Shown here piece by piece: positions 11,461 through 31,228 of a DNA stretch of 64,000 bases. The notes under the pieces were generated by a model. That model saw nothing but the letters and a program-made list of their open reading frames with translations, had not been told where the DNA came from and ran no database searches. Source of the stretch: an uncultured Acetatifactor sp. (GTDB taxonomy: Bacteria; Bacillota; Clostridia; Lachnospirales; Lachnospiraceae); the NCBI GenBank assembly GCA_947625255.1, contig CANQNT010000007.1, positions 62,001-126,000 on the forward strand, read 5' to 3'. Position 1 is the stretch's first letter, and each line of letters opens with the position of its first letter. Both the position numbers and the translations under genes were made by a program.

Positions 11461-12438
11461 TTATTTATGCACATTTAGTAAAGTTTTCATTCTTGTGCCG
11501 AGCTTCAATTCATTTCTCAAATATGTTAATTTTGTTTTGTATGATGCGGAGCAAAATACTTTTGAGACTTTCCTTAGGTTAATATTAAGGCGATACTGCT
11601 CCCAAAAGGAACTCCGATTTGGTGGCATACATGGTGATATTAACAAATATTTATTATGCGTTATCGCCGAATCGATGTCAATACGCTCAGCAAATATAAC
11701 ATCTTTTAGACTTTCAAAAATTTTCTCTCCTTTACTAGAGTTAATAATAATCAGTGAGGTTCCTTTGTCATCGTCAGAAATCATTGCAAAAGACTTTACC
11801 CCCCCCCCCCACGCATCTCCTAAAATAATATCTGCCTCGGAATTAATATACTTATGATTACACCCATAACAAGAAGGACGTATGTTATAATCAGAGAGAA
11901 ATGCTCGCATATACGGATCTAATATTCTTGGATATGACAACGTTTTTTTACTATCAAAGCTTATTGATAGTCGATAATTATTCCAGCCTCTATCTTTGCA
12001 TCTAAAATTAACTTTATTAATCTTATGGTGTTCCGAAATCTTTCTTAAATAATTACACCAAACATAAGGACTAGGTACTCCATGACAAGCTAATGAAATT
12101 AAGATAAGGTAATGATTGTTTCCTATGTATTTTCTTAACGCAGCAACTTGACAAGGGGTTCCAACAAATAGAACATATTTGCTTGTGCCTAGAATGGTTT
12201 CAATTTTATAAAATATATCCTGTATATTACTTTGGACATACTTGCTGCCTATGCAATCATCTAAATTTTCAAGAGAATCGACCAATCTATGATAAACTTC
12301 GAAGTTACATGAATACCCGGCTGCACAAACAACTCCACCATCTTCAATTACCATACGAGCAATTTCATAAAAAAGACCCCCAGATGAACTAATTCTCCTT
12401 ACATTTTCATCATTACAATAACCTACATAAGATTCCAT
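11461..12438 (-). CDS. FrhB/FdhB C-terminal domain Fe-S oxidoreductase, poly-G tract in frame
   Basis: The 325-residue protein starts after GGGAGGATTTAC. It has the features of the coenzyme F420 hydrogenase beta-subunit-like family seen in exopolysaccharide loci: ISSSGGLFYEIARMV at the N-terminus, LFVGTPCQVAALRKYIG, SLACHGVPSPYVW, RPSCYGCNHKYINSEADI and ILGDAWG. The N-terminal ferredoxin domain usual in this family is absent; a separate ferredoxin gene follows downstream. It is homologous along its length to the gene at 12488-13451. A 12-G tract encodes Trp210 to Val214 directly after the conserved DAW motif and is in frame here. One base fewer would give an immediate TAA. Confidence 0.8.
   Translation of the reverse strand: MESYVGYCNDENVRRISSSGGLFYEIARMVIEDGGVVCAAGYSCNFEVYHRLVDSLENLDDCIGSKYVQSNIQDIFYKIETILGTSKYVLFVGTPCQVAALRKYIGNNHYLILISLACHGVPSPYVWCNYLRKISEHHKINKVNFRCKDRGWNNYRLSISFDSKKTLSYPRILDPYMRAFLSDYNIRPSCYGCNHKYINSEADIILGDAWGGGVKSFAMISDDDKGTSLIIINSSKGEKIFESLKDVIFAERIDIDSAITHNKYLLISPCMPPNRSSFWEQYRLNINLRKVSKVFCSASYKTKLTYLRNELKLGTRMKTLLNVHK
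11799..11810 (-). repeat. poly-G tract A (12 G), in frame
   Basis: Twelve C on the plus strand (G on the coding strand), preceded by T and followed by TAAAG. It lies inside the FrhB-like gene at 11461-12438. Twelve G keep the frame; eleven would create TAA at once, and thirteen would lead to a TGA nine codons further on. Confidence 0.95.
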
Positions 12439-12487
12439 GTAAATCCTCCCGATGCGTTATTAATTCGGGAGATATTTCCATATCTTA

Positions 12488-13451
12488 TTAATGAAAAAGT
12501 GCCCGAATCCGCGTTCCAAGTTTCAACCTGTTACGTATTCCTTGAGTATATTCTTTAACAGATTTTTTACAATATTTTTTTGCCGTTATTTCGATGTCAT
12601 CGGATGAGCAAATGTCTTTCCAGAAATTATCCCTGTCTGTAGGCCTTGGAGCAGAAATCATGATATACCTATTATGTTTCAAAGCATCATCAAAATCAAC
12701 CATCTCACATGTTAAATTCTGAGCGCTTTCCAGCAATTTGCGGCCTATTGGCGTATTAACAAGCACAAGAGTAAGACCCTGATTATCATCTCCTGAATTA
12801 GAGAAATCTTCAGCACCCCAAGCATCTGCCAAGGTAATATCGGAACTTCTTTTAATTCCCTTATTGATGCATTGGTAACAGGATGGTCTTAACGCATAAT
12901 CTTTCAAAAATGCCTGCATATATGGATCTCTACTACGCTTAATATCACTTGAACTCCCATCAGAGAAACTAATGCTTAAATGAAAATTTCTCCATCCCCA
13001 CTTCTTGTGTCGAAAATTAACACTACTAATAGATTTCTTGCTTGATACAAGACTTTTATAATTCTTCCAAATCCCAGGACTAGGCACCCCATGACATACA
13101 AGATCTACTGTCACAAATTCACTGGTACCCCCCCCCCACAATATTTTGGGCTGCCTTAACTTGGCAAGGCGTTCCTGCAAAAAGGACTTTTCTTCCTTCA
13201 TCAAGATATTTTTTAATTTGGGAAAAGCATGTATTTAAATCGCTCTGAAGATATTTACTCCCAAGAAACTGCATTAACTCATCAGTTGTTTCAGCGAATT
13301 TATGAACTACCATAAAATCTTGGTCATAGGCAGCCGCACATACCACGCCGTTTTCCTCCAGAATTGTTTTTGCTAGAGAATAAAAGACTCCTCCCGATGA
13401 ACTAATATATCTTATGGCATCATTTGTATTATATGCAACAAAAGACTGCAT
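12488..13451 (-). CDS. FrhB/FdhB-type Fe-S oxidoreductase, out of frame at a poly-G tract
   Basis: The gene starts at ATG 13451 after GGAGGG. It reads 110 codons to a stop just after a 10-G tract (13137-13128); the rest continues in another frame to 12488. With 9 G (or 12) the two parts join into 320 residues, close to the 325-residue neighbour at 11461-12438. The alignment between AAQNIVG and VCHG then has the same length as AALRKYIG to ACHG in that neighbour. Family motifs are ISSSGGVFYSLAK, LFAGTPCQVKAAQ, DLVCHGVPSPGIW, RPSCYQC and DAWG. It is probably a phase-off gene. A homopolymer sequencing error or a simple pseudogene would look the same. Confidence 0.75.
13128..13137 (-). repeat. poly-G tract B (10 G), out of frame
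   Basis: Ten G on the coding strand, preceded by T and followed by TACCAGTGA. At this length the upstream frame stops three codons later. Nine or twelve G restore the full FrhB-like protein. Confidence 0.95.
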
Positions 13452-13470
13452 TAATAATATCCCTCCAATA

Positions 13471-15063
13471 CTATATTTGAAATCTTGTGTCTGTAATAAA
13501 ACTTATAGAGCACTCACTTTTTCGTGTGTTAATGTAATCTGTCAACATACTCTGAATCTCGCTATTAAGTTCAATCGGGTTTTCATCAGAATTTGCAAAT
13601 GCCATTTCGCCTTTAGCATAATTATCAGAAAACCCATATCCATCAAGACCTGCAATAGCAATAGACTTTACATTGAATAAATCTAATAACCTCAAAAGCA
13701 TCAGTCCCGAATTATCCACATGAATCCAACCGCATTTAATTAATCTTTTGAAAGAGATAACATACTCTGCATTATACTTATTATCGATATTTGACGTTAC
13801 AATAACGGGAATTCCTGACTCTACCAACGTTTTTCCAAACGTCTCATATCTCTTGGCATTACTTACATACGCAAAATCACTTGCGATTCCATCATAAATG
13901 CCATTTATAGAAATAACGGCAGCTTTTTTATCACTAATATAGCTCTTAATTTCTTCTTTTTGCTTTTGCACGGAAATACCAGGAGCTACAATAACAACAT
14001 TTCGATCCGCCAGTACATCAGAAAGCCTTTTAATAGCATTTGAGTCATCCACTTCAGATGAAACATATTCCATATAAGTCTCTTCAAGCAAATCATAATC
14101 GTACCTTTTACGAGGAACAGCTCCAATTTTATTTAAAATATATCGAATATCTTTTGAGCGGATGCTGTTTTTCTTTTTCAAATACGTTACATTATTAACA
14201 TGTGCGCTATAGCACCCCGCCACAAAGTAAGGTGTTGAATAACCCCAGCTACACTTTGTACGAATATTCTCAATGTAATCATCGATAATATCAAGCAAGG
14301 CATCAATATCATATGAATAATGTAGCTTGTCGACCATATATTGCGCAATTAATTCTGTAGGTGTATTACCGGCGCCGCGTCCCATACCAGCAACAGTTCC
14401 ATCAACAACGACTTCTCTTTTTCCCAAAGTCATTCTAAGAAACTCTTGTGATAATGCGTTAGACATCTGCATATTATTATGCGAATGAAAGCCTATTCTA
14501 CAGGTAGGAGTCAAGTTATGGTTAATAATTTCAAAAACTCTTTCCAAATCTTCTTTATACATAGATCCAAATGTATCTACTATAGAAAGGCAATATGGTT
14601 CAATAGTATTAACTTGGTTAAGAAATTCGATTAATTCTATATCCGAATATCCCAAGATGTCAACAGGCTGAATAAAAAGTGTATACCCTTTCTGCTTAAT
14701 TACTTTGCATGCCTCAATAGCATCATTTCGTTCATTCTTAAAAAAACACTCACGAATTGCATCTATAGAATCTCCTTTGCACTCATCAAGGTTTTCAACA
14801 CTATATCTGCTATAATCCGCAAGAACGGTGAATTTACTTTCTCCCTTGTCTTTTGGGATAAATCGCTTGGCGTCTTGTGAATTCCGAAATACTGTTTTGC
14901 CTTCTCCAAATCCCTCATTTTGGAAAAAACCAATCTCTATAAAGTCAATGTGTGCTTTTTTTAGTCCGTTAATTATACCAGTGATGTTTTCATTTCCAAA
15001 CTTCTTATCAATCAAATAAGCACCATCACGAAGGGTACAATCTAAAAGTTTAGCATGTTTCAT
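13471..15063 (-). CDS. HMGL-type aldolase fused to a second domain
   Basis: The 530-residue protein starts at ATG 15063 after GGAGG. Residues 1-300 are a DRE-TIM metallolyase barrel: LLDCTLRDGAY near the N-terminus (metal-binding Asp and catalytic Arg), GFHSHNN (metal-binding His pair) and DGTVAGMGRGAGNTPTE. The family joins or splits 2-keto acids, as in 4-hydroxy-2-oxovalerate aldolase and isopropylmalate synthase. Residues about 340-530 form a second, Rossmann-like region (VVIVAPGISVQKQK, SIAIAGLDGYGFSDNYA) whose role is unknown. It lies between the KdsB gene and the KdsC-like gene. No KdsA or NeuB homolog is seen, so this enzyme may form the 3-deoxy-ulosonate. That function is an inference. 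Confidence 0.75.
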   Translation of the reverse strand: MKHAKLLDCTLRDGAYLIDKKFGNENITGIINGLKKAHIDFIEIGFFQNEGFGEGKTVFRNSQDAKRFIPKDKGESKFTVLADYSRYSVENLDECKGDSIDAIRECFFKNERNDAIEACKVIKQKGYTLFIQPVDILGYSDIELIEFLNQVNTIEPYCLSIVDTFGSMYKEDLERVFEIINHNLTPTCRIGFHSHNNMQMSNALSQEFLRMTLGKREVVVDGTVAGMGRGAGNTPTELIAQYMVDKLHYSYDIDALLDIIDDYIENIRTKCSWGYSTPYFVAGCYSAHVNNVTYLKKKNSIRSKDIRYILNKIGAVPRKRYDYDLLEETYMEYVSSEVDDSNAIKRLSDVLADRNVVIVAPGISVQKQKEEIKSYISDKKAAVISINGIYDGIASDFAYVSNAKRYETFGKTLVESGIPVIVTSNIDNKYNAEYVISFKRLIKCGWIHVDNSGLMLLRLLDLFNVKSIAIAGLDGYGFSDNYAKGEMAFANSDENPIELNSEIQSMLTDYINTRKSECSISFITDTRFQI

Positions 15064-15088
15064 GTGCTTACCTCCACGTTCCAAACAA

Positions 15089-15835
15089 TTATATCCCATC
15101 TCTTAATTTAATGGCCTGTTCAACGAGCGAAACCTGTTCCGGATAATCTACGCCAATGCTGCTATACTTAGTCTCTTTAACTCGTATCTTATAGCCATTT
15201 TCCATAGCTCGCAACGGTTCAATCCCCTCACCAAGCTCCAATTCCGTCTGACTCATACTTACAAACATCTTGAGAAAATCACGTTTGTAGGCGTATATTC
15301 CCACATGTCTAAATATGCGTGCAAGCTTTCCGTCTTTGATATTTGAAGGAATAATACTTCTGGAGAAATATAGAGCATCATCATTTTTATCTACTACAAC
15401 TTTTACAGTGCTACTAGCGGCTATTTCATCTGGATCCGTTATTTCAATTCTTAGAGAGCCAAATTCAACGCTTGCATCCTCAAATATTGAGATAACTTCA
15501 CTGATCTCTGCCGGATTAATGACAGGCTCATCCCCTTGAATATTAACAAACAAATCGCCCTGTACTTTAGTTGCAACTTCTCCAACTCTATCTGACCCTG
15601 TCTTGTGCTGATCAGATGTCATGATTACAGGCATCTGAAATGCAACACATACTTGGTAGATAGTATCATCATCAGTTGCAACATATACTTTATCAAGTTC
15701 CGGAACTTTTATGCATTGCTGATACACCCACCAGATCATAGGTTTTCCCAATATATCAACTAACGGTTTACCGGGAAACCTTGAAGATTTGTAGCGTGCA
15801 GGGATAACACCAATTACTTTCATATTATTAATCAT
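15089..15835 (-). CDS. kdsB: CMP-Kdo synthetase (3-deoxy-manno-octulosonate cytidylyltransferase)
   Basis: The 248-residue protein has the KdsB nucleotide-binding motif VIPARYKSSRFPGKPL at the N-terminus, then VATDDDTIY, TGSDRVGEVA and NIQGDEPVINP, all typical of CMP-Kdo synthetase. The length is as usual (about 250). The enzyme activates a 3-deoxy-ulosonic acid with CTP for transfer to a glycan. Kdo is best known from Gram-negative lipopolysaccharide, so its occurrence in a Firmicutes-type polysaccharide locus suggests a capsule containing Kdo or a related sugar acid. The start overlaps the stop of the flippase gene by eight bases. Confidence 0.9.
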   Translation of the reverse strand: MINNMKVIGVIPARYKSSRFPGKPLVDILGKPMIWWVYQQCIKVPELDKVYVATDDDTIYQVCVAFQMPVIMTSDQHKTGSDRVGEVATKVQGDLFVNIQGDEPVINPAEISEVISIFEDASVEFGSLRIEITDPDEIAASSTVKVVVDKNDDALYFSRSIIPSNIKDGKLARIFRHVGIYAYKRDFLKMFVSMSQTELELGEGIEPLRAMENGYKIRVKETKYSSIGVDYPEQVSLVEQAIKLRDGI

Positions 15836-17264
15836 TATTTTTTCCTTTCTTCCACCTAGAATTTATCAACCCAAGAAACATCTTGGGTAATTTCCGATTC
15901 ATTATAATGTTGTAAAGTAATGCGATTAAAATGCATATAAGATAACCAGTTGTGTTTCTGCAATAACATGCAGCGGCGGAAATAACGAATGTCAATAATC
16001 CTATGGTAATTTCGGGGTAATTATAGTTTATTTTTATCATTTTCCCTACATCATGATACCTATAAACACAAACAATAATATACGAAACAACCGTGGAAAT
16101 AGATGCTGCATACAATCCAAAACGAGATACCATTAACAGGTTCACTGCTAAATTAATAATTGCCCCTGCCGTAGACGATGCGGCCACATGACCTGTTTCC
16201 TTAAGTGCAATATATAAGCTTCCATACCAAGAAACTAGGCTTGAAAAGAATACCCCGCCATATAAAATTGGAATTTGATAGTATGCGTCGTTGTATTTAG
16301 CATCAAAAAGTACATAAAACATCAAAGGTGTAGCCGCTAATAAGAGTAAAATAACACCTATAAGGAAATTGAACATAAAACGGAACATCTTGCTGTAATA
16401 CTCACCCGGATTTTCAGTATCGAAACTTCTTACAGCCGACTCAGTCCACGCCATATTAAAAATACTATAAGCTGTTGAGTACAAAGTTGGTATTTTTGTT
16501 GCTGCGGAATAAATACCATTCATACTGACGCCCAAAAATGCAGTTACAACAAATCGATCAGACATATTAATAATCCAAAGTGAGATCGATGATGGCACTA
16601 TTGGAGCTGAAAACGCAAGCATCTCTTTTAAGCTTTCTTTTGAAAAATAGGAATGAGAAAAATAATGTCTTATTTCCTTTTGGCATGCCATATACACCAG
16701 TGAAGTTGCATATCCAAGCATAACGGACATCAGCACACCAATAAGAGTAAATTTGAGAACAGACACTAAAATGATCATCCATAGCATATAAGAAACGCTA
16801 TATACTATAATCGAAATTGTATATTTTATATTCTGCCCCATACCTCTTAGTAGCTGCCCAAAAACAATATACCCAGCTTCTGCTGACATCATCAGGCAGA
16901 TACATATTGCCGTTAATGGCGATATATGTGCAATTAACATTCCGCCTACACCTAAGACAGATGCCAAAATAGCAGTCGAGAACAAGAAAATTATAGTGCT
17001 ACTAATATACGCTTTTCTTTTATCGTCAGTTTTTGCTGTAAGAAGGTATCGAAACGCACCCTGCTGAATCTGTAAGGTTAATACTGGAATTAATATACTT
17101 GCTACAGAAACAATTATGTCATATGTTCCGTATTCCCCTGTAGAAAGGTTCCTCGTAGCAATAGGGAGAGTAATCAGCCCTATAAACTTTGGTGTTAAGC
17201 CTCCAATAGAAAGCAAAAACGTATTTTTTATCAGTCTTTTATTTTCATTTTCTACGCTATCCAC
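15828..17264 (-). CDS. wzx: Wzx-type polysaccharide flippase
   Basis: The protein is about 478 residues from GTG 17264, chosen because CGGAGG lies six bases ahead; an ATG at 17279 has no site. It is very hydrophobic with about 12-14 predicted membrane helices. The N-terminus (NTFLLSIGGLTPKFIGLITL) is typical of the MATE/MVF-like polysaccharide transporter family. It would move lipid-linked repeat units across the membrane, working with the EpsG-type polymerase at 22640-23833. It overlaps the pyruvyltransferase gene by eight bases, which suggests translational coupling. Confidence 0.87.
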   Translation of the reverse strand: MDSVENENKRLIKNTFLLSIGGLTPKFIGLITLPIATRNLSTGEYGTYDIIVSVASILIPVLTLQIQQGAFRYLLTAKTDDKRKAYISSTIIFLFSTAILASVLGVGGMLIAHISPLTAICICLMMSAEAGYIVFGQLLRGMGQNIKYTISIIVYSVSYMLWMIILVSVLKFTLIGVLMSVMLGYATSLVYMACQKEIRHYFSHSYFSKESLKEMLAFSAPIVPSSISLWIINMSDRFVVTAFLGVSMNGIYSAATKIPTLYSTAYSIFNMAWTESAVRSFDTENPGEYYSKMFRFMFNFLIGVILLLLAATPLMFYVLFDAKYNDAYYQIPILYGGVFFSSLVSWYGSLYIALKETGHVAASSTAGAIINLAVNLLMVSRFGLYAASISTVVSYIIVCVYRYHDVGKMIKINYNYPEITIGLLTFVISAAACYCRNTTGYLICILIALLYNIIMNRKLPKMFLGLINSRWKKGKNND

Positions 17265-18576
17265 AGAGAACCTCCGCATTTCTTTTTGACTCTTCCGTTA
17301 TCCTAGCAACGTTATTTAAATATTCACTATTATCGGCATCAATAATTGTTTTTGTTTCCTTAACAATCGAATCAACATTCAAAGCCAATGTCCTAAAATC
17401 AAAGAATCGATACGGGTAATTTATCATCTCATACAACGCTTCTGTTTTATGTGAATCAGAGCCAAATAATAATATTGGTGTACCTGCCAATAAAGACAAA
17501 ATCGAAGTGTGCCATCTTCCAGAAATGAAAATTTGAGCGCCTTGAAGTACATGATACAAATCTTCATAACTAGAGTTGTGTATGCACAAATAAGGTAACT
17601 TGTTTTTTCTTATTGTGTTCATCACCGGAGGATAGTAGCGACCAAAGCCCACTATAAATACTACCTGTGAACATAAATCCCTAAGCTTTTCTATGAGTTC
17701 ATCGTACATCGATTCTACATCGAATAGACTATCCCGATCTGTATAAAACCCAGAGGTATCACCAACACAAATATAGGGCTTGGAAAAGTCGATTGAGGAT
17801 TTCAGATATTCTGATGCTGTCCACGATAAACTCGGTTTAAACGAAAAAAGAGCATCCGGAACATATTTCGCATCGTTATATCCGCATTGTTTGCTAAGTA
17901 TATTTAACGAAAGCGGTTCTCTCACGTAGACACCATCTAGTTTTGGATATATCTTACTTATCATATAATATATATCTCGGTTTTGCGGATCCACAGTGTG
18001 ATTGATTATAAATGTTTTCTTATTAAACCAAACTTTCGACAAGTAGGACATAAATAAAACATATAACCCACCGACATGGTAATACCCATTCCTGTCAGTG
18101 CCATTAACTATGCTCCCTTCCCCATTAACAATTACTATATCAGCCCATTCAAGCATTTTCTTTTCATATTGAAGTCTTTTCCCCTGCATTACTTCTTCAG
18201 AATATTTTTCATAATCAGAAAACCGATATGGGACATGATACTTTTGAATTTCGAAACCTGTATTTTGTCCGCGTGCCTTCTTTATTGATTTTTTTATAAG
18301 ACGATATTCACCCATTAATAGCGTATCATCTAATGTGTCCTGAAGCTTTTCTTTGAAACTTCTCTCTGTGATACTGTAATAGGAATTATTAATGCTCTCT
18401 TGAGGGGTCTGTTTCCAACCATCAATCGGAGTTGCCGAATTAAGACTACGCCACGAAATTGTCCTAATTTCATTTTCTTCATTCTTTTCCAGCATATTTA
18501 ATAACATATCAGAGGTTGCATTTGCTCCATAGTTTGGCACATCGCGGGAGTCTCCAACTAATAGCACTTGGCTCAT
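17257..18576 (-). CDS. polysaccharide pyruvyl transferase family protein
   Basis: The protein is 439 residues from ATG 18576, which follows poly-G tract C by nine bases. N-terminal LLVGDSRDVPNYGANATSDM and later LFMSYLSKVW, YVREPLSLN and ISGRWHTSILSLLAGTP match the pyruvyl transferase family (PF04230), which adds ketal pyruvate from phosphoenolpyruvate to sugars. With 10 G the gene uses its own start. With 9 G it would be fused to a 34-residue stub of a paralog upstream. The G-rich tract may itself act as a weak ribosome binding site. FrhB-like genes in the same locus are common companions of this family. Confidence 0.8.
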   Translation of the reverse strand: MSQVLLVGDSRDVPNYGANATSDMLLNMLEKNEENEIRTISWRSLNSATPIDGWKQTPQESINNSYYSITERSFKEKLQDTLDDTLLMGEYRLIKKSIKKARGQNTGFEIQKYHVPYRFSDYEKYSEEVMQGKRLQYEKKMLEWADIVIVNGEGSIVNGTDRNGYYHVGGLYVLFMSYLSKVWFNKKTFIINHTVDPQNRDIYYMISKIYPKLDGVYVREPLSLNILSKQCGYNDAKYVPDALFSFKPSLSWTASEYLKSSIDFSKPYICVGDTSGFYTDRDSLFDVESMYDELIEKLRDLCSQVVFIVGFGRYYPPVMNTIRKNKLPYLCIHNSSYEDLYHVLQGAQIFISGRWHTSILSLLAGTPILLFGSDSHKTEALYEMINYPYRFFDFRTLALNVDSIVKETKTIIDADNSEYLNNVARITEESKRNAEVLCG

Positions 18577-18580
18577 AGTC

Positions 18581-18694
18581 TCATACCCCCCCCCCGATAG
18601 ATTTTTCAATCAACAGAAGAAGTGATTCTGTAGTACCAATAGCGCCGTAGTTAGGGCAATCTCTAAAATCGCCGATTAATAAAATTTTCTTCAT
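18581..18694 (-). pseudogene. N-terminal stub of a second pyruvyl transferase, ending at a poly-G tract
   Basis: The ATG at 18694 follows AGGAG. The 37 codons read KILLIGDFRDCPNYGAIGTT and on to a 10-G tract, then stop at TGA. This matches the first 33 residues of the complete paralog that begins just downstream (LLVGDSRDVPNYGANATS). So the locus has the start of one pyruvyltransferase gene joined, at the tract, to the whole of another. With 9 G the stub and the full gene would form one frame of 478 residues. Confidence 0.7.
18586..18595 (-). repeat. poly-G tract C (10 G) at a gene-to-gene junction
   Basis: Ten G on the coding strand, preceded by C and followed by TATGAGACTATG. Ten G give a stop at once (GTA TGA); eleven give a stop four codons on; nine fuse the stub to the complete pyruvyltransferase gene. 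Confidence 0.95.
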
Positions 18695-18714
18695 CAAAAC
18701 TACTCCTAATAAAA

Positions 18715-20450
18715 TTAGCTAGAAATCAAATTCTTTATTTTCAACCATGTAACACATTCCGCTAAATAAGGTATTTCCGAGAATGTGTTGCATTTCACAC
18801 ATCTTGCTCCTAGATCATGACAATCCTTAACTAATCTCTTTCGATTTTCCTTGTCTGCCTCCTTTTTATCAAAAGGAATATAAGCGTGGTATAATTCTGC
18901 ACAGCTTTGCAACATAGGAATCTTTTTTAACGAGGACTTAAATGTCTCATTTTGGTTGACTTCAATAAGCTGCAGATTGTCCATGTCAATTTCTCGATTC
19001 TGCCTATGTGAATATATAGGCACGTTCAAGAGCTGTGGACATAACTGATATACTATATATAATGAACCATGTCCATTTATCTTTTCCGACATAGGTGTCG
19101 ATGTTAATGAATCAAACACCTTCTTGTCAGCAAACATGTAGGCCGAGTACCTAAACAAATTTGTAACATTGACATGGTCCAGATTCTCGTTTAAGACGAA
19201 CCAATTGTAAGCTTTAGTACAGTCCTCTTCACTAAGCACTTCCTTTTCAATGCCAAGCTCTTTTAACCTAAGTTTCCACTCTTCACTATATAAATGCAAG
19301 TAGTGGCTTGGATCAATGTGTTTATGAGCTAGAGAATTTGTATAGTTAATGTAAAAATCAACAAGCTTTTCTATAGATTGCACATATCCTCCCGGTCTTG
19401 AAAGACGATTTGCAACTTCACCACCTCCACCATACTCAACAAACTCTGGTAAGTCTGCATTTGCAAGCATTTCATGGTATTTAACATTGCCGCCATGAAA
19501 GGCGAGCAACTCACCAAATACTGTAAAATCACTTTTTTTTCGAGACTCTATTGCCGTGACAAAATTCGGTTCGGTGCAATCAAAAGTTTTCAGGACAACC
19601 CCTAACAAGCTTGATAACTTTAAGCATGCTTCTGTATCCCCAGCGGCTGCAGGAATAGATTCATCCGCGCTTTCCCAGTTTAATATACTAAACTTTTTGT
19701 TGCCACAGGACGCCACATTAGCAGCTATCACACACCTAGAATCCAGTCCACCGGTAGCAAAAATGCCGACTGAGTCGAACGCTGAATATTTATTTACATT
19801 GAAGTCTATAGCATAAGCAACAGCTTTGGATAATCCATCGGATCTAGTAATATAACTATTTGTTCCAATATCCTTTAATATTACATTGGCTGTACTACAA
19901 TTGATTTCAAGTAACTGATGCGATAGCAATCTGTACACGCCGTTAAATGGCGTTTTATTAAAAGGCAAGCAACGTGTGGCTATTTTTTGATATAGAAGCG
20001 TATCATCAACCGTTCCGTTAATTGTCTTTGCAATATGATATCCTTGTGGAGTAACAATAAAACCATCCTTGCCAACATAATAATGAAGGTAATACGACTG
20101 CGTTTCGTCACAACACACATATATTGTATCTTTACATTTAATAATAAGAGCGAAAGAACCTATGCAATTCCGACGAATAAGATTAATGTCTTGTTTACTA
20201 TTGAAATCCTCATATATTTCCTTTAATGCGTTATACCCCCCCCACGCTTATAAACCAATGTCCCACTTAAAGCTACATAGTCATCTTGGTAGCCATAGAA
20301 GTTAATATTATCAATTGCCAACTTGTGATATGTATATATATGAGTACATGAAACGTGTTTCTCGCCACATGTAGTAAATCCAGCTGTTAAGAGGCTGTTA
20401 TGCAGGGTAGATGCCCACTTTATATTGTTAGTCAGAAAAAGCTTTCCCAT
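18715..20450 (-). CDS. asparagine-synthase-like amidotransferase, out of frame at a poly-G tract
   Basis: The first part (75 codons from ATG 20450) ends after an 8-G tract. The second part continues in another frame to 18715. With 9 G they join into a 578-residue protein of asparagine-synthase-type layout. The N-terminal part has the segment ALSGTLVYK, and after the tract ALKEIYEDF and CCDETQSYYLHYY follow as in the glutaminase-like domain. The synthase part has a PP-loop GIFATGGLDSRCVIA (ATP pyrophosphatase) and EFVEYGGGGEVANR. In polysaccharide loci such proteins amidate uronic acids. A UDP-uronate epimerase gene lies in the locus. The N-terminal Cys nucleophile of class II amidotransferases is not seen. 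It is off in this sequence. Confidence 0.72.
20236..20243 (-). repeat. poly-G tract D (8 G), out of frame
   Basis: Eight G on the coding strand, preceded by T and followed by TATAACG. At 8 G the frame stops three codons later (TAA). Nine G restore the asparagine-synthase-like protein; ten give GTA TAA. Confidence 0.95.
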
Positions 20451-24428: not shown

Positions 24429-24447
24429 TGTCCTCTCCTCCAAGTCA

Positions 24448-25359
24448 TCAAAGGCTTTTCAGCCATTCCATGGTCATTCTTGTACCCTGTGCAAAAGACA
24501 CCTCCGGTTCAAATCCACAGTCCTCTTTTGTCGCAGTAATATCAAACGTACTAAGCGGCATATTGGTTCCTGTGAATGGAATATCACCAAACAACGGAAT
24601 AGCATCTGGAGCGCACTCTTTCTGCATCTCCAGGATGAATTCCTTAAGTGGTCTTGCATTACCGCTACCGATCATATACTCGCAGAAAGGCTTTCCGTTC
24701 TTGGCAATCAGGTAGAATGCCTTTGCTACATCGGAAACATAAACAAAATCATAATTCTGGGTTGCAGCCGTAAACTGCAACGGTTCCCCATTTATCACCT
24801 TACGCAGAGTTGTGTTGACGAAGCGAGGAGACAGTTCTCCAACGCCGTATGCATTTGTAATCATCGGCCACACAAGCTCAATTCCAACATCAACTGCAAC
24901 CGACTTGCACATACAATGGGCGATATGTTTTCCCATCCCATAAATGTAGCCCATACCAGGACGGCTACCCTGCGCATGGATTGCAGCTTCAACCTCATAT
25001 TCCATAATGCTGCCGGCGCACACAAATCTGGTGCATCCAAGTTCCTTAGCCGCTTTCATACACTCAACCGTATTAAGGGCATTTTGCATCTGCAGGTTAT
25101 AATCCACTCTTGCTGCACCGGCCGAACCAGCCCACGCAAAATGAATAAATGTATCATAATAGTTATGCGGCACTTTCTTCAACATTGCCTCCGTGTCGGA
25201 GATATCGCACTGCATATATTTCAAATTATCCTGGGCTTTTAATCTCTTGGGTTCTTCCCCCATATCCAGAGCAAGTACCTCACACCCTTCGGAAATGAAC
25301 TTCTCAACTGTATAGCTCCCTAAAAAACCATCTGCTCCGGTTATAATTACCTTTTCCAT
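24448..25359 (-). CDS. NAD(P)-dependent sugar epimerase/reductase (SDR family)
   Basis: The 303-residue protein has the Rossmann motif VIITGADGFLGSYTVE at the N-terminus and the catalytic pair in YIYGMGK (YxxxK). It lies between the RfbC-like epimerase and the NUDIX gene in the CDP-sugar cluster, so it is probably the last reductase or epimerase that yields a CDP-6-deoxyhexose. The product cannot be told from sequence. The 3-dehydrase (RfbH type) needed for CDP-3,6-dideoxyhexoses is not seen, which argues for a 6-deoxy sugar with its 3-hydroxyl kept. Confidence 0.82.
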   Translation of the reverse strand: MEKVIITGADGFLGSYTVEKFISEGCEVLALDMGEEPKRLKAQDNLKYMQCDISDTEAMLKKVPHNYYDTFIHFAWAGSAGAARVDYNLQMQNALNTVECMKAAKELGCTRFVCAGSIMEYEVEAAIHAQGSRPGMGYIYGMGKHIAHCMCKSVAVDVGIELVWPMITNAYGVGELSPRFVNTTLRKVINGEPLQFTAATQNYDFVYVSDVAKAFYLIAKNGKPFCEYMIGSGNARPLKEFILEMQKECAPDAIPLFGDIPFTGTNMPLSTFDITATKEDCGFEPEVSFAQGTRMTMEWLKSL

Positions 25360-25394
25360 AGTAATCCTCCAATGTATTTAGGCTTCTATCATAA

Positions 25395-25967
25395 TCAAAC
25401 ATTTTCACCGCTAAACCACTTCTGTAACAAATCACCATATAGCGTTATATGTACTGGTAGCAGATCTGCCGGCATACGGTCAAACCACTTCAAATATCCA
25501 GCTGTGTGTTCATCAGCGTTCCCATTCTTGATAACGAAATGACTTGTCAGCTTCGCACGGTATAGAAAAGATATATTATGCGAACGAGCCAGCTGATTTT
25601 CTAACCACGGTCTTTCCTGCTTATTGATTATTTCCCTTACCACGATAGGATTTTTGTCAAACTGAACTTCTACGCCCAATTCATTTTTAGCAGTTTTCTG
25701 TATCCTCGTTTCCAGGGATTCTTGCAAGCGTACACATCCGCCAGGGATGTGCCAGCCTTTACCGTGATATGGATCATCTCGCCACGTAAGAAGCACTCTG
25801 CGGTCTGCATCCGTTATAAACAAATCAATATTCACTAACGGCATAAGAGAACTTGCCAGTATAAACAATGATTCAGGAAGTCCTTCACAAGGATTTATGC
25901 TTTCCTGTCGCATTACTTCATACAAATTTTTTACCGTATCATCTATTCGTTTATTATCCTTGCTCAC
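25395..25967 (-). CDS. NUDIX hydrolase with an imperfect Nudix box
   Basis: The protein is about 190 residues from GTG 25967, whose GTGA overlaps the stop of rfbG; an ATG at 26003 lies inside rfbG and is less likely. The Nudix region reads GWHIPGGCVRLQES and then a helix ending in KNELGVEV. The usual REUXEE is changed to KT and NE at places, so metal-dependent hydrolysis may be altered. GDP-mannose-type hydrolases of this family also have degenerate boxes. Inside a CDP-sugar cluster it may act on a nucleotide sugar; the substrate is unknown. Confidence 0.75.
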   Translation of the reverse strand: MSKDNKRIDDTVKNLYEVMRQESINPCEGLPESLFILASSLMPLVNIDLFITDADRRVLLTWRDDPYHGKGWHIPGGCVRLQESLETRIQKTAKNELGVEVQFDKNPIVVREIINKQERPWLENQLARSHNISFLYRAKLTSHFVIKNGNADEHTAGYLKWFDRMPADLLPVHITLYGDLLQKWFSGENV

Positions 25968-27016
25968 TTCGTCAGAAACTCCGCTATCTGCTTGTCCATA
26001 CACGCTCTGACATCACCACCCGACATCCAGCACTTACTCCACTCCACAACTTTTTCAATCGCAGTATCAAGATTCCAGTGTGGCTTCCAGCCGAATATGG
26101 CTTTCAGCTTCGAACAATCTAACTTCAAAAAATTCGCCTCGTGCGGACCGCCGTCATAACGATCAACCCACTTCATGCCTTCGCCCCATTTACTGACGAA
26201 CAAATCAACCAGGGTTCCTGTCTGGAAACAGTCCACATCATCCGGTCCAACGTTGTACCAACCAGCCACACTGCCATTTTCATACTGCTCCGCTGCAATC
26301 ATCAGGTAAGCATAGAGCGGCTCAAGCACATGCTGGTATGGGCGTGTTGAGTAGGGATTGCGAACAATAATATCTTCGTGCTTTTGAGCCGCACGGATGC
26401 AGTCGGGGATAATTCTGTCGTGAGCAAAATCACCACCACCGATTACATTACCGGCTCTGGCTGTGGATATCGCCACATGACCATCTGGGAAGAAACTATT
26501 CTTATATGAGTGAGTCACAAGTTCCGAACATGATTTTGAATTGGAGTAAGGATCATATCCATCCAACTCTTCATTCTCTCTATATCCCCATGCCCATTCT
26601 TTATTGAGGTAGACCTTATCAGTGGTCACGTTCAGAAAAGACTTCACACAGCTGCTGTTGCGCACACATTCCAGAATATTGACTGTTCCCATAACATTAG
26701 TTTCATATGTATATGCAGGATCTTTATAGCTGTCCCTTACAATCGGTTGAGCTGCAAGGTGCAAAACAACCTCCGGCTGAGCATCATCAAAAGCGGCCTT
26801 GAGTGCTTTATAGTCCCTTACGTCACCAATGATAGAGTGAATATCTGAAGCAATGTCAGCAATTTCAAATAAAGAAGGTTCTGTCGGAGGATTCAATGAA
26901 TATCCCGTTACCTCTGCTCCTGCGTTCACGAGCATTTTGCAAAGCCAGGAACCTTTGAATCCGGTGTGTCCGGTAACAAATACTTTTTTGCCTTTATAAA
27001 ATGATATGTCGAACAT
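25964..27016 (-). CDS. rfbG: CDP-glucose 4,6-dehydratase
   Basis: The 350-residue protein has VFVTGHTGFKGSWLCKML at the N-terminus (the distinctive KGSWL of RfbG), an ATxVMGTVNILE-like region, VTTDKVYLNKEW and YSNSKSCSELV (YxxxK). RfbG forms CDP-4-keto-6-deoxyglucose, the entry point for CDP-deoxysugars. It lies three bases from rfbF and overlaps the NUDIX gene, so it is part of one transcription unit. Length is as usual for the family (about 350-360). Confidence 0.92.
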   Translation of the reverse strand: MFDISFYKGKKVFVTGHTGFKGSWLCKMLVNAGAEVTGYSLNPPTEPSLFEIADIASDIHSIIGDVRDYKALKAAFDDAQPEVVLHLAAQPIVRDSYKDPAYTYETNVMGTVNILECVRNSSCVKSFLNVTTDKVYLNKEWAWGYRENEELDGYDPYSNSKSCSELVTHSYKNSFFPDGHVAISTARAGNVIGGGDFAHDRIIPDCIRAAQKHEDIIVRNPYSTRPYQHVLEPLYAYLMIAAEQYENGSVAGWYNVGPDDVDCFQTGTLVDLFVSKWGEGMKWVDRYDGGPHEANFLKLDCSKLKAIFGWKPHWNLDTAIEKVVEWSKCWMSGGDVRACMDKQIAEFLTK

Positions 27017-27019
27017 GGA

Positions 27020-27802
27020 TTAGTCCTCCCACAGCTTCCACGGTGCTTTTCCGCTGTCCCACAGCTTCTCAAGCTGCTGCTTCTCTCTGAGTGTATCCAT
27101 ACACTGCCAATAGCCTTTATGCGTGTAAGCAGCCAGTTCACTCTTGCCCACTAATCCATTCAGTGGCTCTTTTTCAAATACTGTGGTGTCACCAGAAATA
27201 TAATCAAACAATGCCGATTCGAAGACAAAAAATCCTATATTGATAAGGTCGCCATCAAAATCAGATTTTTCTCTGAATGACCCAACTAACCCATCATTTT
27301 CAACTTCAACAACGCCTTTATTCTGCCCGAAATTATAGACAGAAACCGTTCCTATCTTTCCGGAAGCCTTGTGATATTCGAGCAGCTTTTTTATATCCAC
27401 ATCTCCAACCGCATCACCATATGTGAGCATGAATGTCTCATCACCCACATAATCTTTGATACGCTTTACCCGTCCACCAGTCTGAGTGTTAAGTCCAGTA
27501 TCTACAATTGTTACTTTCCACGGCTCAACATGTTTATTATGTACAATCATCTCGTTGCCACCATTTGTATAATCAAATGTGATATCCGACGTATGCAAAA
27601 AGTAATCGGCAAACCACTCCTTAATGACATGCTGCTTGTAACCCGCACAAATAATGAACTCATTGAATCCATAGTACGAATATATTTTCATGATGTGCCA
27701 GAGAATAGGCATACCGCCAATTTCTATCATTGGCTTCGGTTTATATGCTGATTCCTCAGAAATTCGGGTTCCAAATCCACCCGCAAGAATAACTACTTTC
27801 AT
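27020..27802 (-). CDS. rfbF: glucose-1-phosphate cytidylyltransferase
   Basis: The 260-residue protein begins VVILAGGFGTRISEESAYKP, with the nucleotidyltransferase loop and the PKPMIEIGG motif, followed by GYWQCMDTLREK near the C-terminus, all typical of RfbF. It makes CDP-glucose from CTP and glucose-1-phosphate. Its start overlaps the stop of the acyltransferase gene (TAATG), so a frameshift at tract F, which ends that gene early, might weaken its coupled translation. Confidence 0.93.
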   Translation of the reverse strand: MKVVILAGGFGTRISEESAYKPKPMIEIGGMPILWHIMKIYSYYGFNEFIICAGYKQHVIKEWFADYFLHTSDITFDYTNGGNEMIVHNKHVEPWKVTIVDTGLNTQTGGRVKRIKDYVGDETFMLTYGDAVGDVDIKKLLEYHKASGKIGTVSVYNFGQNKGVVEVENDGLVGSFREKSDFDGDLINIGFFVFESALFDYISGDTTVFEKEPLNGLVGKSELAAYTHKGYWQCMDTLREKQQLEKLWDSGKAPWKLWED

Positions 27803-28251
27803 TATTCTCCCTCCTCAATGTGACCTATGAGTTTTGCTGGTACCCCCCCCCAGATCTCTCCAGGACCCGTTGAATTTAACAAAACTGCATTTGCCGCAAT
27901 GACAGATTTTCTTCCAACAACAAGTCTCCCCTCATTGCATAAAATTTTAGCTCCAGCACAAAGAACTGCACCATCCTCAATAATGCACCCCTCGCACTTC
28001 TTCTTGTCAGGTTCACTGTATACCCTGCCAATTCCAATTGTTACTCCTTGAAATATTCGTACATTATCTCCAATGATAGAAGATTGATGAATCGCTCCGC
28101 CGACCATATTGTGTATAAATTCAACGTTATTCCCTAGCGTAACTGTTGTCGGGATATCACAGCCAAGCAATAGATTGATCCGCTTTGCAACATGTTTAAT
28201 TATTGGAATTTTATAAAGCTTTGTCATATTTGTTACGCTTATAATCATCAA
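27802..28251 (-). CDS. hexapeptide-repeat acyltransferase with poly-G tract near its end
   Basis: The 149-residue protein is of the serine acetyltransferase-like left-handed beta-helix type: MVGGAIHQSSIIGDNVRIFQ, GVTIGIGRVYSEPDKKKCEG, GAVLCAGAKILCNEGRLVVG, AANAVLLNSTGPGEIWGGVPAK. It probably O-acetylates a sugar with acetyl-CoA. The 9-G tract encodes the WGGV of the conserved GEIWGG-PAK motif (Trp134 to Val137) and is in frame. With 8 or 10 G the last 10-12 residues change and the frame ends early, so the tail of the enzyme, not its core, would vary. Confidence 0.8.
   Translation of the reverse strand: MMIISVTNMTKLYKIPIIKHVAKRINLLLGCDIPTTVTLGNNVEFIHNMVGGAIHQSSIIGDNVRIFQGVTIGIGRVYSEPDKKKCEGCIIEDGAVLCAGAKILCNEGRLVVGRKSVIAANAVLLNSTGPGEIWGGVPAKLIGHIEEGE
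27843..27851 (-). repeat. poly-G tract F (9 G), in frame
   Basis: Nine G on the coding strand, preceded by T and followed by TACCAGCA. It overlaps the WGG motif of the acyltransferase. Eight G lead to TAG six codons later; ten lead to TGA within about ten codons. Confidence 0.95.
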
Positions 28252-28309
28252 ATTCTCCTTAGATTGTCATCTAATAATATTTCAATACAAACGTGCTACA
28301 AATAGCGCT

Positions 28310-29485
28310 CTAATTTTTCATCTGTGCAGCGATATCCGCATCAACAATCTCTTCGCCCGTCTTACCCTTTAACTGCTCCTTGGATGCGGCACTTAAGCCA
28401 TCATTGACCACAGCTTTTAAGTCACAAGTACTGCATCTATCAAGCTGCTCTTTCGTAACTTTGCCATCTCTGTAATCACGGCAAATCTTATTCTCATACA
28501 TGGAGTATGGATGCTTGGTAAATAGTGCTTTTGCCTTGTGTTTCACAACCCACCATGCTGGCTTCATAAAGTACTTGTGCATAGCCGGAGAAACGGAGCC
28601 AATCATCCAGCACTGACGGTCACAGCAACGCACCTTCTTACGAACATCTTCTGCTTCCGGACTGTTCCACAGCTCATCCCACGTCTGCGTGTTCAGGTTG
28701 CCCATAACCTCTTTATCCTTTGTTCCATTACAGGGCATAACATCTCCGTAAGGATCAATAAAGAAGGTGTCAAAGCTCATATCGCAAGGCAACAATCTCG
28801 GCTGACCGTAAATGTAATTGATAAGGCCATGATTGAAATAGGCTCTAAACCATTTCTTAGGACTATTCGAGCGCAGAAGCTCATTAACCAACTCCTCAAA
28901 ATTCTTCGCAACCATTGGACGATCATGAATGATGTTCTTAGCTTCCACGAAGTAAAAGCTGTTATGCAGAGACGCTGTGGCAAACTCCATGCCCATCTCA
29001 TCGGAGATTTTATAAAGCGGCACAAGGTCCGGAGCATTCTTGTCCTGGACGGTCATTCCGAAGCCTACATCCTTAATCCCCATCTCGACCAACTTTTTCA
29101 AAGTACCATATCCACGCTGATAGCCGTTCTGAAGACCACGGATTTCGTTGTTGGTCTGTTCCAAACCCTCGATGGAGATACGGATGCCAACATCCGGGAA
29201 CTCTTTACACAGAGCCACAATTCGATCCGTGAAGAATCCGTTCGTAGAGATGACAATTCGGTCGCTCTTCTTCCGAAGCTCGGCTACGATATCGCGAATA
29301 TCCGTCCGGATAAAAGGTTCTCCACCAGTAATATTCGTGAAATACATCGGAGGCAGTTTCTTAATCGTCTCAATGCTAATTTCCTCCTCCGGCTTGGAGG
29401 GTGCTTTATATCGATTGCACATAGAACAACGAGCGTTGCACCGATATGTAACAATAACTGTTCCGTTTAACTTTTTCTCTGCCAT
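28310..29485 (-). CDS. radical SAM/SPASM protein of the polysaccharide locus
   Basis: The 391-residue protein has the radical SAM cluster CNARCSMC (C-x3-C-x2-C) near residue 16 and ITGGEPFIR, ISTNGF and IRISIEG that follow. A SPASM-like C-terminal region with several Cys (CDMSFDTFFIDPYGDVMPCN, then CCDRQC and CSTC) suggests auxiliary Fe-S clusters. Such proteins occur in surface-glycan loci but the substrate is not established. The C-terminus is about 60 residues longer than the SPASM domain and rich in Lys. The gene has no poly-G tract. Confidence 0.82.
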   Translation of the reverse strand: MAEKKLNGTVIVTYRCNARCSMCNRYKAPSKPEEEISIETIKKLPPMYFTNITGGEPFIRTDIRDIVAELRKKSDRIVISTNGFFTDRIVALCKEFPDVGIRISIEGLEQTNNEIRGLQNGYQRGYGTLKKLVEMGIKDVGFGMTVQDKNAPDLVPLYKISDEMGMEFATASLHNSFYFVEAKNIIHDRPMVAKNFEELVNELLRSNSPKKWFRAYFNHGLINYIYGQPRLLPCDMSFDTFFIDPYGDVMPCNGTKDKEVMGNLNTQTWDELWNSPEAEDVRKKVRCCDRQCWMIGSVSPAMHKYFMKPAWWVVKHKAKALFTKHPYSMYENKICRDYRDGKVTKEQLDRCSTCDLKAVVNDGLSAASKEQLKGKTGEEIVDADIAAQMKN

Positions 29486-29500
29486 GACTGTTCTCGTCTC

Positions 29501-31228
29501 CTAATCTTGATAAATCCTCATAACTTTTTGATAATACTGCTCCACGGTATTAAAACTTATATCCCTACAGTTCTGGCTGTAAGCATCGGTCAAAGCCTTA
29601 TCCGCCCACAGCTTTTGAATCTGTTCTTTTAATTCTTTCTTATCCCCGCTCTTAAATAGCTCGCCAGTTTTTCCAACTGTGATAAGTTCCGGGATACCAC
29701 CGATATCTGCTCCTAGCACAGGCGTCCTATACATTTGGCTCTCCATCACGGAAAAAGGACAGTTCTCATACCACTCTGAGGGATAAATGCTGAACCTTGC
29801 TTCTCGAATCAATGTCTCCAACGCATCTCCGGTCAGGAATCCAACATCCTTGATATTTTTCATACCTTTTATCTCGTCTTCCAGAGGGCCTGTCCCGGCA
29901 AAAATAAACTGTACATCCGGCAGCTCTCTGCACACAGAAATTAAAGTTTTAATGCCTTTCTCCTCTGAAAAGCGACCGAAGTACAGCACATATGGTGCAG
30001 AATAATAAACATTTAAGCTATACCCCCCCCCACGATAAATGGACAGCAACTTTTCAGTGTAACTTTCACTGCTATCACATTCAAATCTCAAACAACCATT
30101 AGTAAGAGAATCCAATGCGACAGGATTATTCCAATAGAATTTAATAAGTGATTCTAATTCGGCTTCATTACCGTTTTTAAATAAATCGCCATTTTCACCT
30201 TTTGTAATACTCTCTGGTATTCCTCCTGCATCTGACCCAATAACAGGAGTCCCAAGTTTCAATGACTCAATAACTGTCAACCCAAACGGTTCATACCATT
30301 CCGAAGGGCATATTGACATTCTCGCTTTCTTTATGAAGCCTTTTAATTTTTCCCCTGTTTGAAACCCAACATTCTTTACATTGCTTAAGGCGCTAATCTC
30401 AGACTCCAGGGGGCCAGTACCAGCAAATATAAAATTAACCTCTGGAAGGGCCTTACAAACATTCAAGAGGGTCTTAATGCCTTTTTCTTCTGAAAAACGA
30501 CCATAATAAAGCACATAATCATCTTTAGATGAGACAGGCTCTGGTGCAAAGTCAGTAAAATTATGCATTACTATTGTCTTTTCAGCGAAAATAGGATTAG
30601 TATCCATCATCTTCTTCATAAAGTTAGAACAGCAGATAATTGTATCTATCTGTTTATACGTTCCTTTAATTTTCCAGAAAGTAGCTTCCATTGTGCCTAT
30701 AGCACTTTTAGCTGTAGAGCCGTGGATGCACTTACCCTTTGTACAATTCAGAAAATGTCCTCCAAGACACTTCTCGCAGTTCTCGTGTGTGGCAGGATTG
30801 TTCATCATGTGGTTCGGGCATACCAACTGATAGTCGTGAGCAGTGAACACAATCTTGACTTTGTGCTTAGTCTCCTTCTCCCATTTCCGGATTTCCAGGA
30901 TAATCGAAGGTGTCAATTGATAATTAAAGTTATTCAGATGACAGACATCCGGTTTGAAATCATCCAGGACAAGACGAATCTTTTTCCGTGCCTCAGACGA
31001 ATAGATGGTCTTAATCGGATATGTCAGCTTCGATAGCTTGCTGCCACCATGGAAGTCCATATCTGATGTGTATGCGTTCACAGCATTTCCAACACATCGA
31101 CCTTCGTGTTCCATACCAAAGTATTGAACCTCATGTCCATACGCTTTCAACGCATCTCCCAGTTTGAATATGTAGGTCTCTGATCCGCCATTCGGATAGA
31201 GAAATTTATTAATCATCAAAATTTTCAT
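29501..31228 (-). CDS. family 4 glycosyltransferase with a duplicated C-terminal domain joined at a poly-G tract
   Basis: The 575-residue protein is longer than usual (about 380). Residues 1-205 form the N-terminal GT-B domain (INKFLYPNGGSETYIFKLGD). A C-terminal domain follows (about 206-395) with FSEEKGIKTL, FIFAGTGPLE, ICPSEWYEPFGLTVIE and AGGIPE. A second, diverged copy (about 413-575) repeats FSEEKGIKTL, FIFAGTGPLE, YPSEWYENCPFSVMESQMY and IGGIPE. The junction is a 9-G tract encoding Gly400-402. With 9 G the reading frame covers both copies. With 8 or 10 G it stops within four codons, giving a normal-sized enzyme with one C-terminal domain. Start overlaps the upstream gene (ATGA). Confidence 0.85.
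   Translation of the reverse strand: MKILMINKFLYPNGGSETYIFKLGDALKAYGHEVQYFGMEHEGRCVGNAVNAYTSDMDFHGGSKLSKLTYPIKTIYSSEARKKIRLVLDDFKPDVCHLNNFNYQLTPSIILEIRKWEKETKHKVKIVFTAHDYQLVCPNHMMNNPATHENCEKCLGGHFLNCTKGKCIHGSTAKSAIGTMEATFWKIKGTYKQIDTIICCSNFMKKMMDTNPIFAEKTIVMHNFTDFAPEPVSSKDDYVLYYGRFSEEKGIKTLLNVCKALPEVNFIFAGTGPLESEISALSNVKNVGFQTGEKLKGFIKKARMSICPSEWYEPFGLTVIESLKLGTPVIGSDAGGIPESITKGENGDLFKNGNEAELESLIKFYWNNPVALDSLTNGCLRFECDSSESYTEKLLSIYRGGGYSLNVYYSAPYVLYFGRFSEEKGIKTLISVCRELPDVQFIFAGTGPLEDEIKGMKNIKDVGFLTGDALETLIREARFSIYPSEWYENCPFSVMESQMYRTPVLGADIGGIPELITVGKTGELFKSGDKKELKEQIQKLWADKALTDAYSQNCRDISFNTVEQYYQKVMRIYQD
30023..30031 (-). repeat. poly-G tract E (9 G) between two copies of a glycosyltransferase domain
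   Basis: Nine G on the coding strand, preceded by T and followed by TATAGCTTAA. Ten G give GTA TAG; eight give ATA GCT TAA. The tract is therefore a switch between a two-copy and a one-copy protein. Confidence 0.95.

What the first reader, a model, noticed from the sequence alone, without database searches (positions are those of the whole stretch)
11799..30031. Six poly-G tracts form a possible multi-gene phase-variation system in one polysaccharide locus
Runs of 12, 10, 10, 8, 9 and 9 G (coding strand) lie at 11799, 13128, 18586, 20236, 27843 and 30023. All lie in or between genes of the polysaccharide locus: two Fe-S oxidoreductases, a pyruvyltransferase, an asparagine-synthase-like enzyme, an acyltransferase and a glycosyltransferase. 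I found no G or C run above six elsewhere in the 64 kb. Each one-base slip leads to a stop soon after. Affected genes are mainly modifying enzymes and transferases; the CDP-sugar, KdsB, flippase and polymerase genes have none. This is the pattern of contingency loci known in Campylobacter and Helicobacter, which I do not know as described for this group.
Basis: partly seen in the sequence, partly recalled or inferred. Interest (0 to 1): 0.93.

Follow-up and report, generated by a model that had tools for sequence, protein, structure and literature searches.

The report
Poly-G switch array in glycan locus
Six runs of 8 to 12 G's sit in a predicted surface-sugar gene cluster of a likely Lachnospiraceae bacterium, among 26 such runs in its genome; they likely slip in length during DNA copying, so that sister cells would make different sugar coats.

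Summary
In detail: six G runs (12, 10, 10, 8, 9, 9 on the coding strand) lie in one polysaccharide locus, and no other G or C run in the 64 kb exceeds six. They belong to a genome-wide set of 26 runs of 8 or more. Of these, 21 are followed by TA, against 5-9% for runs of 1-6, and the TA falls in all three codon registers. The runs are therefore a distinct class, not base composition or assembly noise. In genes of the same kinds in other genomes, homologous tracts differ in length and frame state, as slipped-strand contingency loci should.

Three window genes are in frame and three out of frame. Two tracts differ from a plain ON/OFF switch: 30023 joins a glycosyltransferase to a second glycosyltransferase domain, and 18586 follows a duplicated gene start. 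Elsewhere the same G(n)TA unit sits in promoter spacers, in ORFs ending on a hairpin over the next ribosome-binding site, and in leader ORFs ending inside a terminator. Homopolymer contingency and attenuator switching are known; the clostridial glycan array, the TA signature and the hairpin-coupled form appear new. Variation inside one population was not testable.

The parts
11799..11810 (-). G12-TA tract inside FrhB-type gene 1 (ORF 11461-12438); in frame in this assembly
   Evidence: Pfam FrhB_FdhB_N and FrhB_FdhB_C
11461..12438 (-). FrhB_FdhB-like iron-sulfur oxidoreductase gene 1
13128..13137 (-). G10-TA tract inside FrhB-type gene 2; out of frame in this assembly
12488..13451 (-). FrhB_FdhB-like gene 2, split by the tract into an N-terminal piece (ATG at 13451) and a C-terminal piece (12491-13126)
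18586..18595 (-). G10-TA tract between a 33-aa duplicate of the pyruvyltransferase N-terminus and the pyruvyltransferase start ATG
17257..18694 (-). polysaccharide pyruvyltransferase gene with the N-terminal duplicate upstream (17 of 32 residues identical)
   Evidence: PS_pyruv_trans
20236..20243 (-). G8-TA tract in the N-terminal part of the asparagine-synthase-like gene; out of frame in this assembly
18715..20450 (-). asparagine-synthase-like gene, split by the tract
27843..27851 (-). G9-TA tract 12 codons before the end of the hexapeptide acyltransferase gene; its in-frame stop overlaps the ATG of the following nucleotidyltransferase gene
27802..28251 (-). hexapeptide acyltransferase gene
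   Evidence: Hexapep, below its cut-off
27020..27802 (-). nucleotidyltransferase (CDP-sugar pathway type by recall) gene; its start overlaps the stop of the tract-bearing gene
   Evidence: NTP_transferase
30023..30031 (-). G9-TA tract at the junction between a complete glycosyltransferase and a second C-terminal glycosyltransferase domain; in frame
29501..31228 (-). two-domain glycosyltransferase (575 aa), two Glycos_transf_1 stretches
   Evidence: homologues; L075

Best explanation
The six G(8-12)TA tracts likely form a slipped-strand contingency array: each would gain or lose G's during replication and so is predicted to shift the reading frame of one surface-glycan gene independently of the others. 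Shown here: tract positions, the non-random TA flank, the frame of each gene in this assembly (11799, 27843 and 30023 in frame; 13128, 18586 and 20236 out of frame), and differing lengths and frame states of homologous tracts in genes of the same kinds in other genomes. Inferred: slippage in living cells and the glycan change. Three modes are predicted in the window: premature stop inside enzymes (11799, 13128, 20236); change of the C-terminus, with possible effect on the overlapping next gene (27843); and fusion or separation of protein segments (30023 adds or omits a second glycosyltransferase domain; 18586 switches between re-initiation at, and N-terminal fusion to, the pyruvyltransferase). 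Phage or immune pressure on the coat is the likely reason for keeping them (inference).
For: Six of six window runs are long and TA-flanked, with no run of length 7. In the whole genome 21 of 26 runs of 8 or more are followed by TA; for runs of 9 or more it is 20 of 23, binomial P about 3e-21 against a 6.5% background. TA occurs in all three codon registers, also within the window alone, so it is not explained by one amino acid. 14 of 26 tracts lie in or at genes with surface-glycan type Pfam matches. Homologous acyltransferase tract: L076 G10 out of frame, L081 G9 in frame, a 7-G run in L077, no tract in L104. Homologous FrhB-like (by eye) tract: L120 G8 out, L125 G9 in. The window's own glycosyltransferase junction tract recurs at 64-65% protein identity in L075, G10, also in frame. 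Of 17 two-domain homologues read, 13 have Gly-Gly followed by V, Y or I at the junction, as G(n)TA would give in different frames.
Against: No read data or second strain: variation in one population is not shown, and the pairs with differing frame state are not the window's own genes. The protein database gave no other copy of the split FrhB gene of this species (the only 100% hit is the window itself; next 52%). The genome is in 126 contigs and may include foreign ones. Three out-of-frame genes could be decaying. Most congeners have few or no tracts: 30 TA tracts among 75 runs of 9 or more in 48 congeners, 16 of 48 with any TA tract. Three related acyltransferases (L083 G8, L122 G11, L120 G9) are all out of frame, which also fits decay. 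Four of the 17 two-domain homologues lack the V, Y or I, and their DNA was not seen.
Confidence: 0.85

Rival explanations
1. Gene decay: the out-of-frame genes are pseudogenes of a horizontally shuffled glycan locus, and the G runs are incidental mutation hot spots.
For: Three of six genes are out of frame; there are partial duplicates (18586 N-terminal copy, ferredoxin-like fragment at 11028-11399). Three related acyltransferase tracts are all out of frame.
Against: The window genes are open apart from the tract. The TA flank is shared by in-frame and out-of-frame tracts. Tracts persist at homologous places over 64-74% protein identity.
Confidence: 0.08
2. Sequencing or assembly artefact of homopolymers (for example two-colour poly-G artefacts).
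For: A single metagenome-type assembly; homopolymer lengths are error prone (general knowledge; the B. breve paper also found reference tract lengths unreliable, passages).
Against: The TA flank (21 of 26) and recurrence at homologous places in independent assemblies are not expected from an artefact. Exact lengths may still be wrong by one.
Confidence: 0.03
3. Tracts act at the RNA level, as targets of a trans-acting RNA with a C-rich loop, as RepG does in Helicobacter pylori, and length tunes rather than switches expression.
For: A shared G(n)TA word in many mRNAs could be one target; RepG precedent seen only as a search listing with the start of the abstract (PMC8295292).
Against: The same unit occurs in apparent promoter spacers, where the tract precedes the transcript (19 of 165 tracts meet my promoter rule). 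No candidate RNA was sought.
Confidence: 0.04

Closest known systems
Poly-G contingency loci of Campylobacter and Helicobacter
   Same: G runs in many genes, glycosyltransferases among them, with frame, promoter and C-terminal forms (H. canadensis, passages of PMC2823697).
   Different: Likely clostridial host; 21 of 26 tracts followed by TA; a junction tract joining two glycosyltransferase domains. The TA flank could not be checked in Campylobacter: the three 50-kb phage stretches fetched held no G run of 7 or more.
Bifidobacterium breve pilus G-tracts
   Same: Poly-G in a gut commensal joins two ORFs and affects downstream genes (passages of PMC9187656).
   Different: Pilus operons rather than a glycan array; no hairpin-covered start site in the passages I saw.
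Streptococcus gallolyticus Pil1 phase-variable attenuator
   Same: A variable repeat in a leader ORF decides whether the ribosome reaches a terminator (abstract and passages of PMC3894217). The leaders of genus g55 have the same layout.
   Different: GCAGA repeats there, a G(n)TA tract here; many copies per genome, upstream of a secreted-protein family.
Clostridium difficile CwpV switch
   Same: Phase-variable surface protein in Clostridia (search listing and start of abstract only, PMC2784873).
   Different: By recall it works by DNA inversion, not by slippage of a homopolymer.

Membership tests
Simple-sequence-repeat contingency locus | Repeat tract longer than chance in a gene or its control region | tested here: met
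Simple-sequence-repeat contingency locus | One-unit change shifts the frame to an early stop | tested here: met
   limited at 27843 (last 12 codons) and 18586
Simple-sequence-repeat contingency locus | Length differs between related genomes at the same place, with different frame state | tested here: met
   L076 and L081, L120 and L125: related genes in other genomes. For the window's own tracts only the 30023 junction had a homologous tract, in frame in both
Simple-sequence-repeat contingency locus | Reversible length variation inside one population | not testable with these tools
   no reads or colony variants available
C-terminal phase variation (H. canadensis type) | Tract late in the gene changes the C-terminus without stopping expression | tested here: met
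   27843 and 30023 by anatomy only
Hairpin-coupled translational switch (as proposed here) | Next gene's ribosome-binding site in a stable hairpin reached only by the in-frame ORF | tested here: not met
   Window tract 27843: 65 of 125 control junctions fold as strongly. Met elsewhere by anatomy in 6 of the 10 candidates tested, of 19 found (0-5 of 125 controls)
S. gallolyticus-type phase-variable attenuator | Leader ORF with a variable repeat whose in-frame stop lies in or at a transcription terminator | tested here: met
   Genus g55 only, by anatomy; the window tracts were not scanned for terminators
S. gallolyticus-type phase-variable attenuator | Translation of the leader prevents termination | not testable with these tools
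   needs an experiment

The most novel reading that the evidence does not exclude
G(n)TA is one portable switch unit of Clostridia, used in four places: inside genes, in promoter spacers, in ORFs ending on a hairpin that covers the next ribosome-binding site, and in leader ORFs ending in a terminator. It would let a host's coat genes and a prophage's tail-region genes in the same genome switch by the same device. The TA is an undescribed nucleotide-level requirement, for tract birth or for slippage (no literature search was aimed at the flank itself).
Probability: 0.45. Interest if true: 0.87.

Novelty: new variant of a known kind. Interest (0 to 1): 0.7.

Why it matters
If true, Clostridia of this kind diversify their coats cell by cell as Campylobacter does, which would bear on phage predation and on immune recognition of commensals. 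The TA flank gives a simple search word for such switches: 232 G9TA matches against 58 for the reversed word in 390 other genomes of the same class. Hairpin-coupled and attenuator forms show how one slippery tract could switch a neighbouring gene without touching its coding sequence.

Tried and rejected
Campylobacter phage stretches as a control for the TA flank: no G run of 7 or more in the three 50-kb stretches fetched, so uninformative. Relatives of one prophage tail-region protein: none in viral contigs or INPHARED. A plasmid search served no purpose. Strain-level variants of the split FrhB gene: none found. TA as a -10 element: fits the promoter-type tracts only. TA as the start of a stop codon or a fixed amino acid: rejected, since it falls in all three registers. 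Peptide conservation of the g55 leaders: no codon-position bias (243, 290, 271 differences), so the frame rather than the peptide appears to be kept. Literature: no paper on poly-G contingency in Lachnospiraceae glycan loci among those listed by searches (20 of 78 shown; 20 of 108; 20 of 46; 2 of 2; 3 of 3); none joining phase variation to a sequestered ribosome-binding site among those listed by 43 (12 of 12) and 71 (6 of 6). These were listings with abstract starts; most subscription journals are not held. Passages of PMC3711429 and PMC2831843 gave general background only. No search was aimed at the TA flank.
Full report
Observation. One search confirms the six runs at the stated coordinates (12, 10, 10, 8, 9, 9). 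The only other runs of 6 or more are five of exactly 6; none has length 7. Markov models of order 2 and 3 trained on the window give on average 0.48 and 0.32 runs of 8 or more, and none followed by TA in 60 replicates each; order 1 gives 2.15, with 0.15 followed by TA. All six are read as G on the coding strand and followed by TA.

Genome-wide class. The window lies at C7:62001-126000 of a 4.07-Mb genome in 126 contigs with 26 distinct runs of 8 or more (flanks). Of these, 21 are followed by TA and 24 by T, against a TA share of 5-9% after runs of length 1 to 6 in the 162 kb examined. For runs of 9 or more it is 20 of 23. TA falls in all three codon registers of the longest readings, in the window alone too, so it is kept as DNA or RNA and not as one amino acid. 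By Pfam, 14 of 26 tracts lie in or at genes of FrhB (FrhB_FdhB), pyruvyltransferase, glycosyltransferase, acyltransferase-3 or hexapeptide type (the window's hexapeptide match is below its cut-off). Others are a DUF1919 gene, a 2-hydroxyacid dehydrogenase, an aldo/keto reductase, the asparagine-synthase-like gene without a Pfam match, three prophage leaders, one promoter-type place, a transposase-associated ORF (L034) and three unassigned places.

Taxon. The acetate kinase of the window has named matches at 86-90% identity from Lachnospiraceae and Acetatifactor MAGs; the closest matches (up to 96%) are unnamed. A Lachnospiraceae host is likely, and I call its class Clostridia on that ground.

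Relatives. Of 80 genomes including the host, 27 have the word G9TA. In 48 congeners 30 of 75 runs of 9 or more are TA-flanked and 16 genomes have any TA tract, the most being 8, so the host is unusually rich. Among 391 genomes of the class including the host, 78 have a match. Leaving out the host there are 232 matches against 58 for the reversed word. Twenty genomes with four or more hold 153 against 12 (a choice that itself favours TA); the rest hold 79 against 46 (counts copied by hand). In 80 loci fetched by homology to the glycosyltransferase, without selection for tracts, 19 of 26 runs with a readable flank are followed by TA.

Evidence for switching. In the window 11799, 27843 and 30023 are in frame and 13128, 18586 and 20236 are out of frame. 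Differences between genomes were found for genes of the same kinds, not for the window's own. The tract of an acyltransferase next to the glycosyltransferase is G10 and out of frame in L076, G9 and in frame in L081, a 7-G run in L077 and absent in L104. A FrhB-like (by eye) tract is G8 and out of frame in L120, G9 and in frame in L125. Against this, three related acyltransferase tracts (L083, L122, L120) are all out of frame. The window's two-domain glycosyltransferase has its junction tract also in L075, in frame; of the 80 loci scanned only that one had the second domain nearby. Of 17 two-domain homologues read, 13 have Gly-Gly and then V, Y or I at the junction, as G(n)TA would give in different frames; four do not, and their DNA was not seen.

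Modes in the window. 11799, 13128 and 20236 interrupt an enzyme. 30023 adds or omits a second Glycos_transf_1 domain; the host has a second such glycosyltransferase-tract-domain gene on C42 (L037). 27843 changes the last 12 codons and its in-frame stop overlaps the next gene's ATG, though without a strong hairpin (65 of 125 control junctions fold as strongly). At 18586 a 33-residue N-terminal duplicate (17 of 32 residues identical) precedes the tract, and the three frames give a stop just before the ATG, a stop overlapping it, or an in-frame fusion. I read this as a change of translation mode, not ON/OFF.

Other uses of the same unit. (a) Promoter spacers: 19 of 165 tracts lie 14-20 bases after a TTGACA-like hexamer (at most one mismatch) and open a TATAAT-like one (at most two); one in the host is perfect in both (L039). 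At least three of the 19 lie inside ORFs (window 18586, one on L037, L125) and are probably chance. The 165 include many fetched by the TA word, so TA shares there are not unbiased. (b) Hairpin-coupled starts: of 19 candidates I compared 10, picked after seeing their layout, with 125 tract-free junctions. Six have folds reached by 0-5 controls: three prophage tail-region genes and an FrhB-FrhB pair in the host, L061 in a congener and L301 in another family. Four do not (55-115 of 125). The six are also richer in G+C (0.44-0.67) than the controls (mean 0.41), which by itself lowers fold energy. In the six, one frame ends on the next ATG and the other two stop 5-19 bases after the tract. In the assembly four of the six are in frame. 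(c) Attenuator-like leaders: in genus g55 (another family of the class) a module of promoter-like sequence, leader ORF, tract and terminator precedes genes for secreted proteins. Of 28 BLAST places, 22 have leader and G run (one of only 6 G), 3 have no G run and 3 no clear start. Of the 22, 6 are in frame and 16 out; 19 are TA-flanked; a terminator stem was found in 20 and the secreted-protein start in 18. Of 18 TA-flanked copies given to, 17 fitted its end pattern: the register that ends in the terminator is open in 17 of 17 and the other two are closed in 17 of 17; lengths are 79, 82 or 91 bases, always the same remainder by three, and differences show no codon-position bias. So translation up to the terminator appears to be kept, not the peptide.

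Known and new. Poly-G contingency with promoter and C-terminal forms is known (PMC2823697, passages). A commensal G-tract switch is known in B. breve (PMC9187656, passages). Phase-variable attenuation is shown for S. gallolyticus Pil1 with GCAGA repeats (PMC3894217, abstract and passages). I found no report of a clostridial glycan array or of a tract coupled to a hairpin-covered start site; the flank was not searched for. I file the finding as a new variant of a known kind.

Limits. No reads and no second strain of this species; assembled lengths may be off by one; contigs other than C7 might be foreign; the reason for TA is unexplained. I propose, without test, that a TA step beside the run raises slippage or marks how tracts arise.

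Noticed in passing
L043 (own genome, C109), tracts at 537-545, 988-996, 1426-1435: Three small genes downstream of a collagen-like phage tail-fibre gene (PHROGs tail families; the three small proteins match no PHROG) each follow a short leader ORF with a G(n)TA tract and a hairpin over the ribosome-binding site; one leader is in frame and two are out of frame in the assembly.
   Followed up: partly
genus g55 loci, e.g. L305 around 1385-1700, L302-L324, L388-L399: Multi-copy promoter-like sequence, leader ORF, G(n)TA tract and terminator module upstream of secreted-protein genes: attenuator-like switches resembling S. gallolyticus Pil1.
   Followed up: partly
L039 tract 904-912 (own genome, C64): Tract in the spacer of an apparent promoter (TTGACA, 19 bases, TATAAT) upstream of a repetitive, proline- and glutamate-rich predicted surface protein.
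   Followed up: no
L044 (own genome, C116), tract 1733-1742: Tract in the tail of one FrhB-type gene whose in-frame stop meets the start of a second FrhB-type gene with a hairpin over its ribosome-binding site.
   Followed up: yes
window 11028-11399: Ferredoxin-like fragment (cysteine motif by recall) downstream of FrhB gene 1, ending abruptly; probably a remnant of another such gene.
   Followed up: no
L035 1170-1177 and L038 4745-4752 (own genome): The two host runs of 8 G followed by AT rather than T; perhaps background runs rather than switches.
   Followed up: no
L167 (viral contig), G9 run at 2964 of the reverse strand: Leader-like tract followed by an inverted repeat over a ribosome-binding site, seen by eye in the listing.
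   Followed up: no
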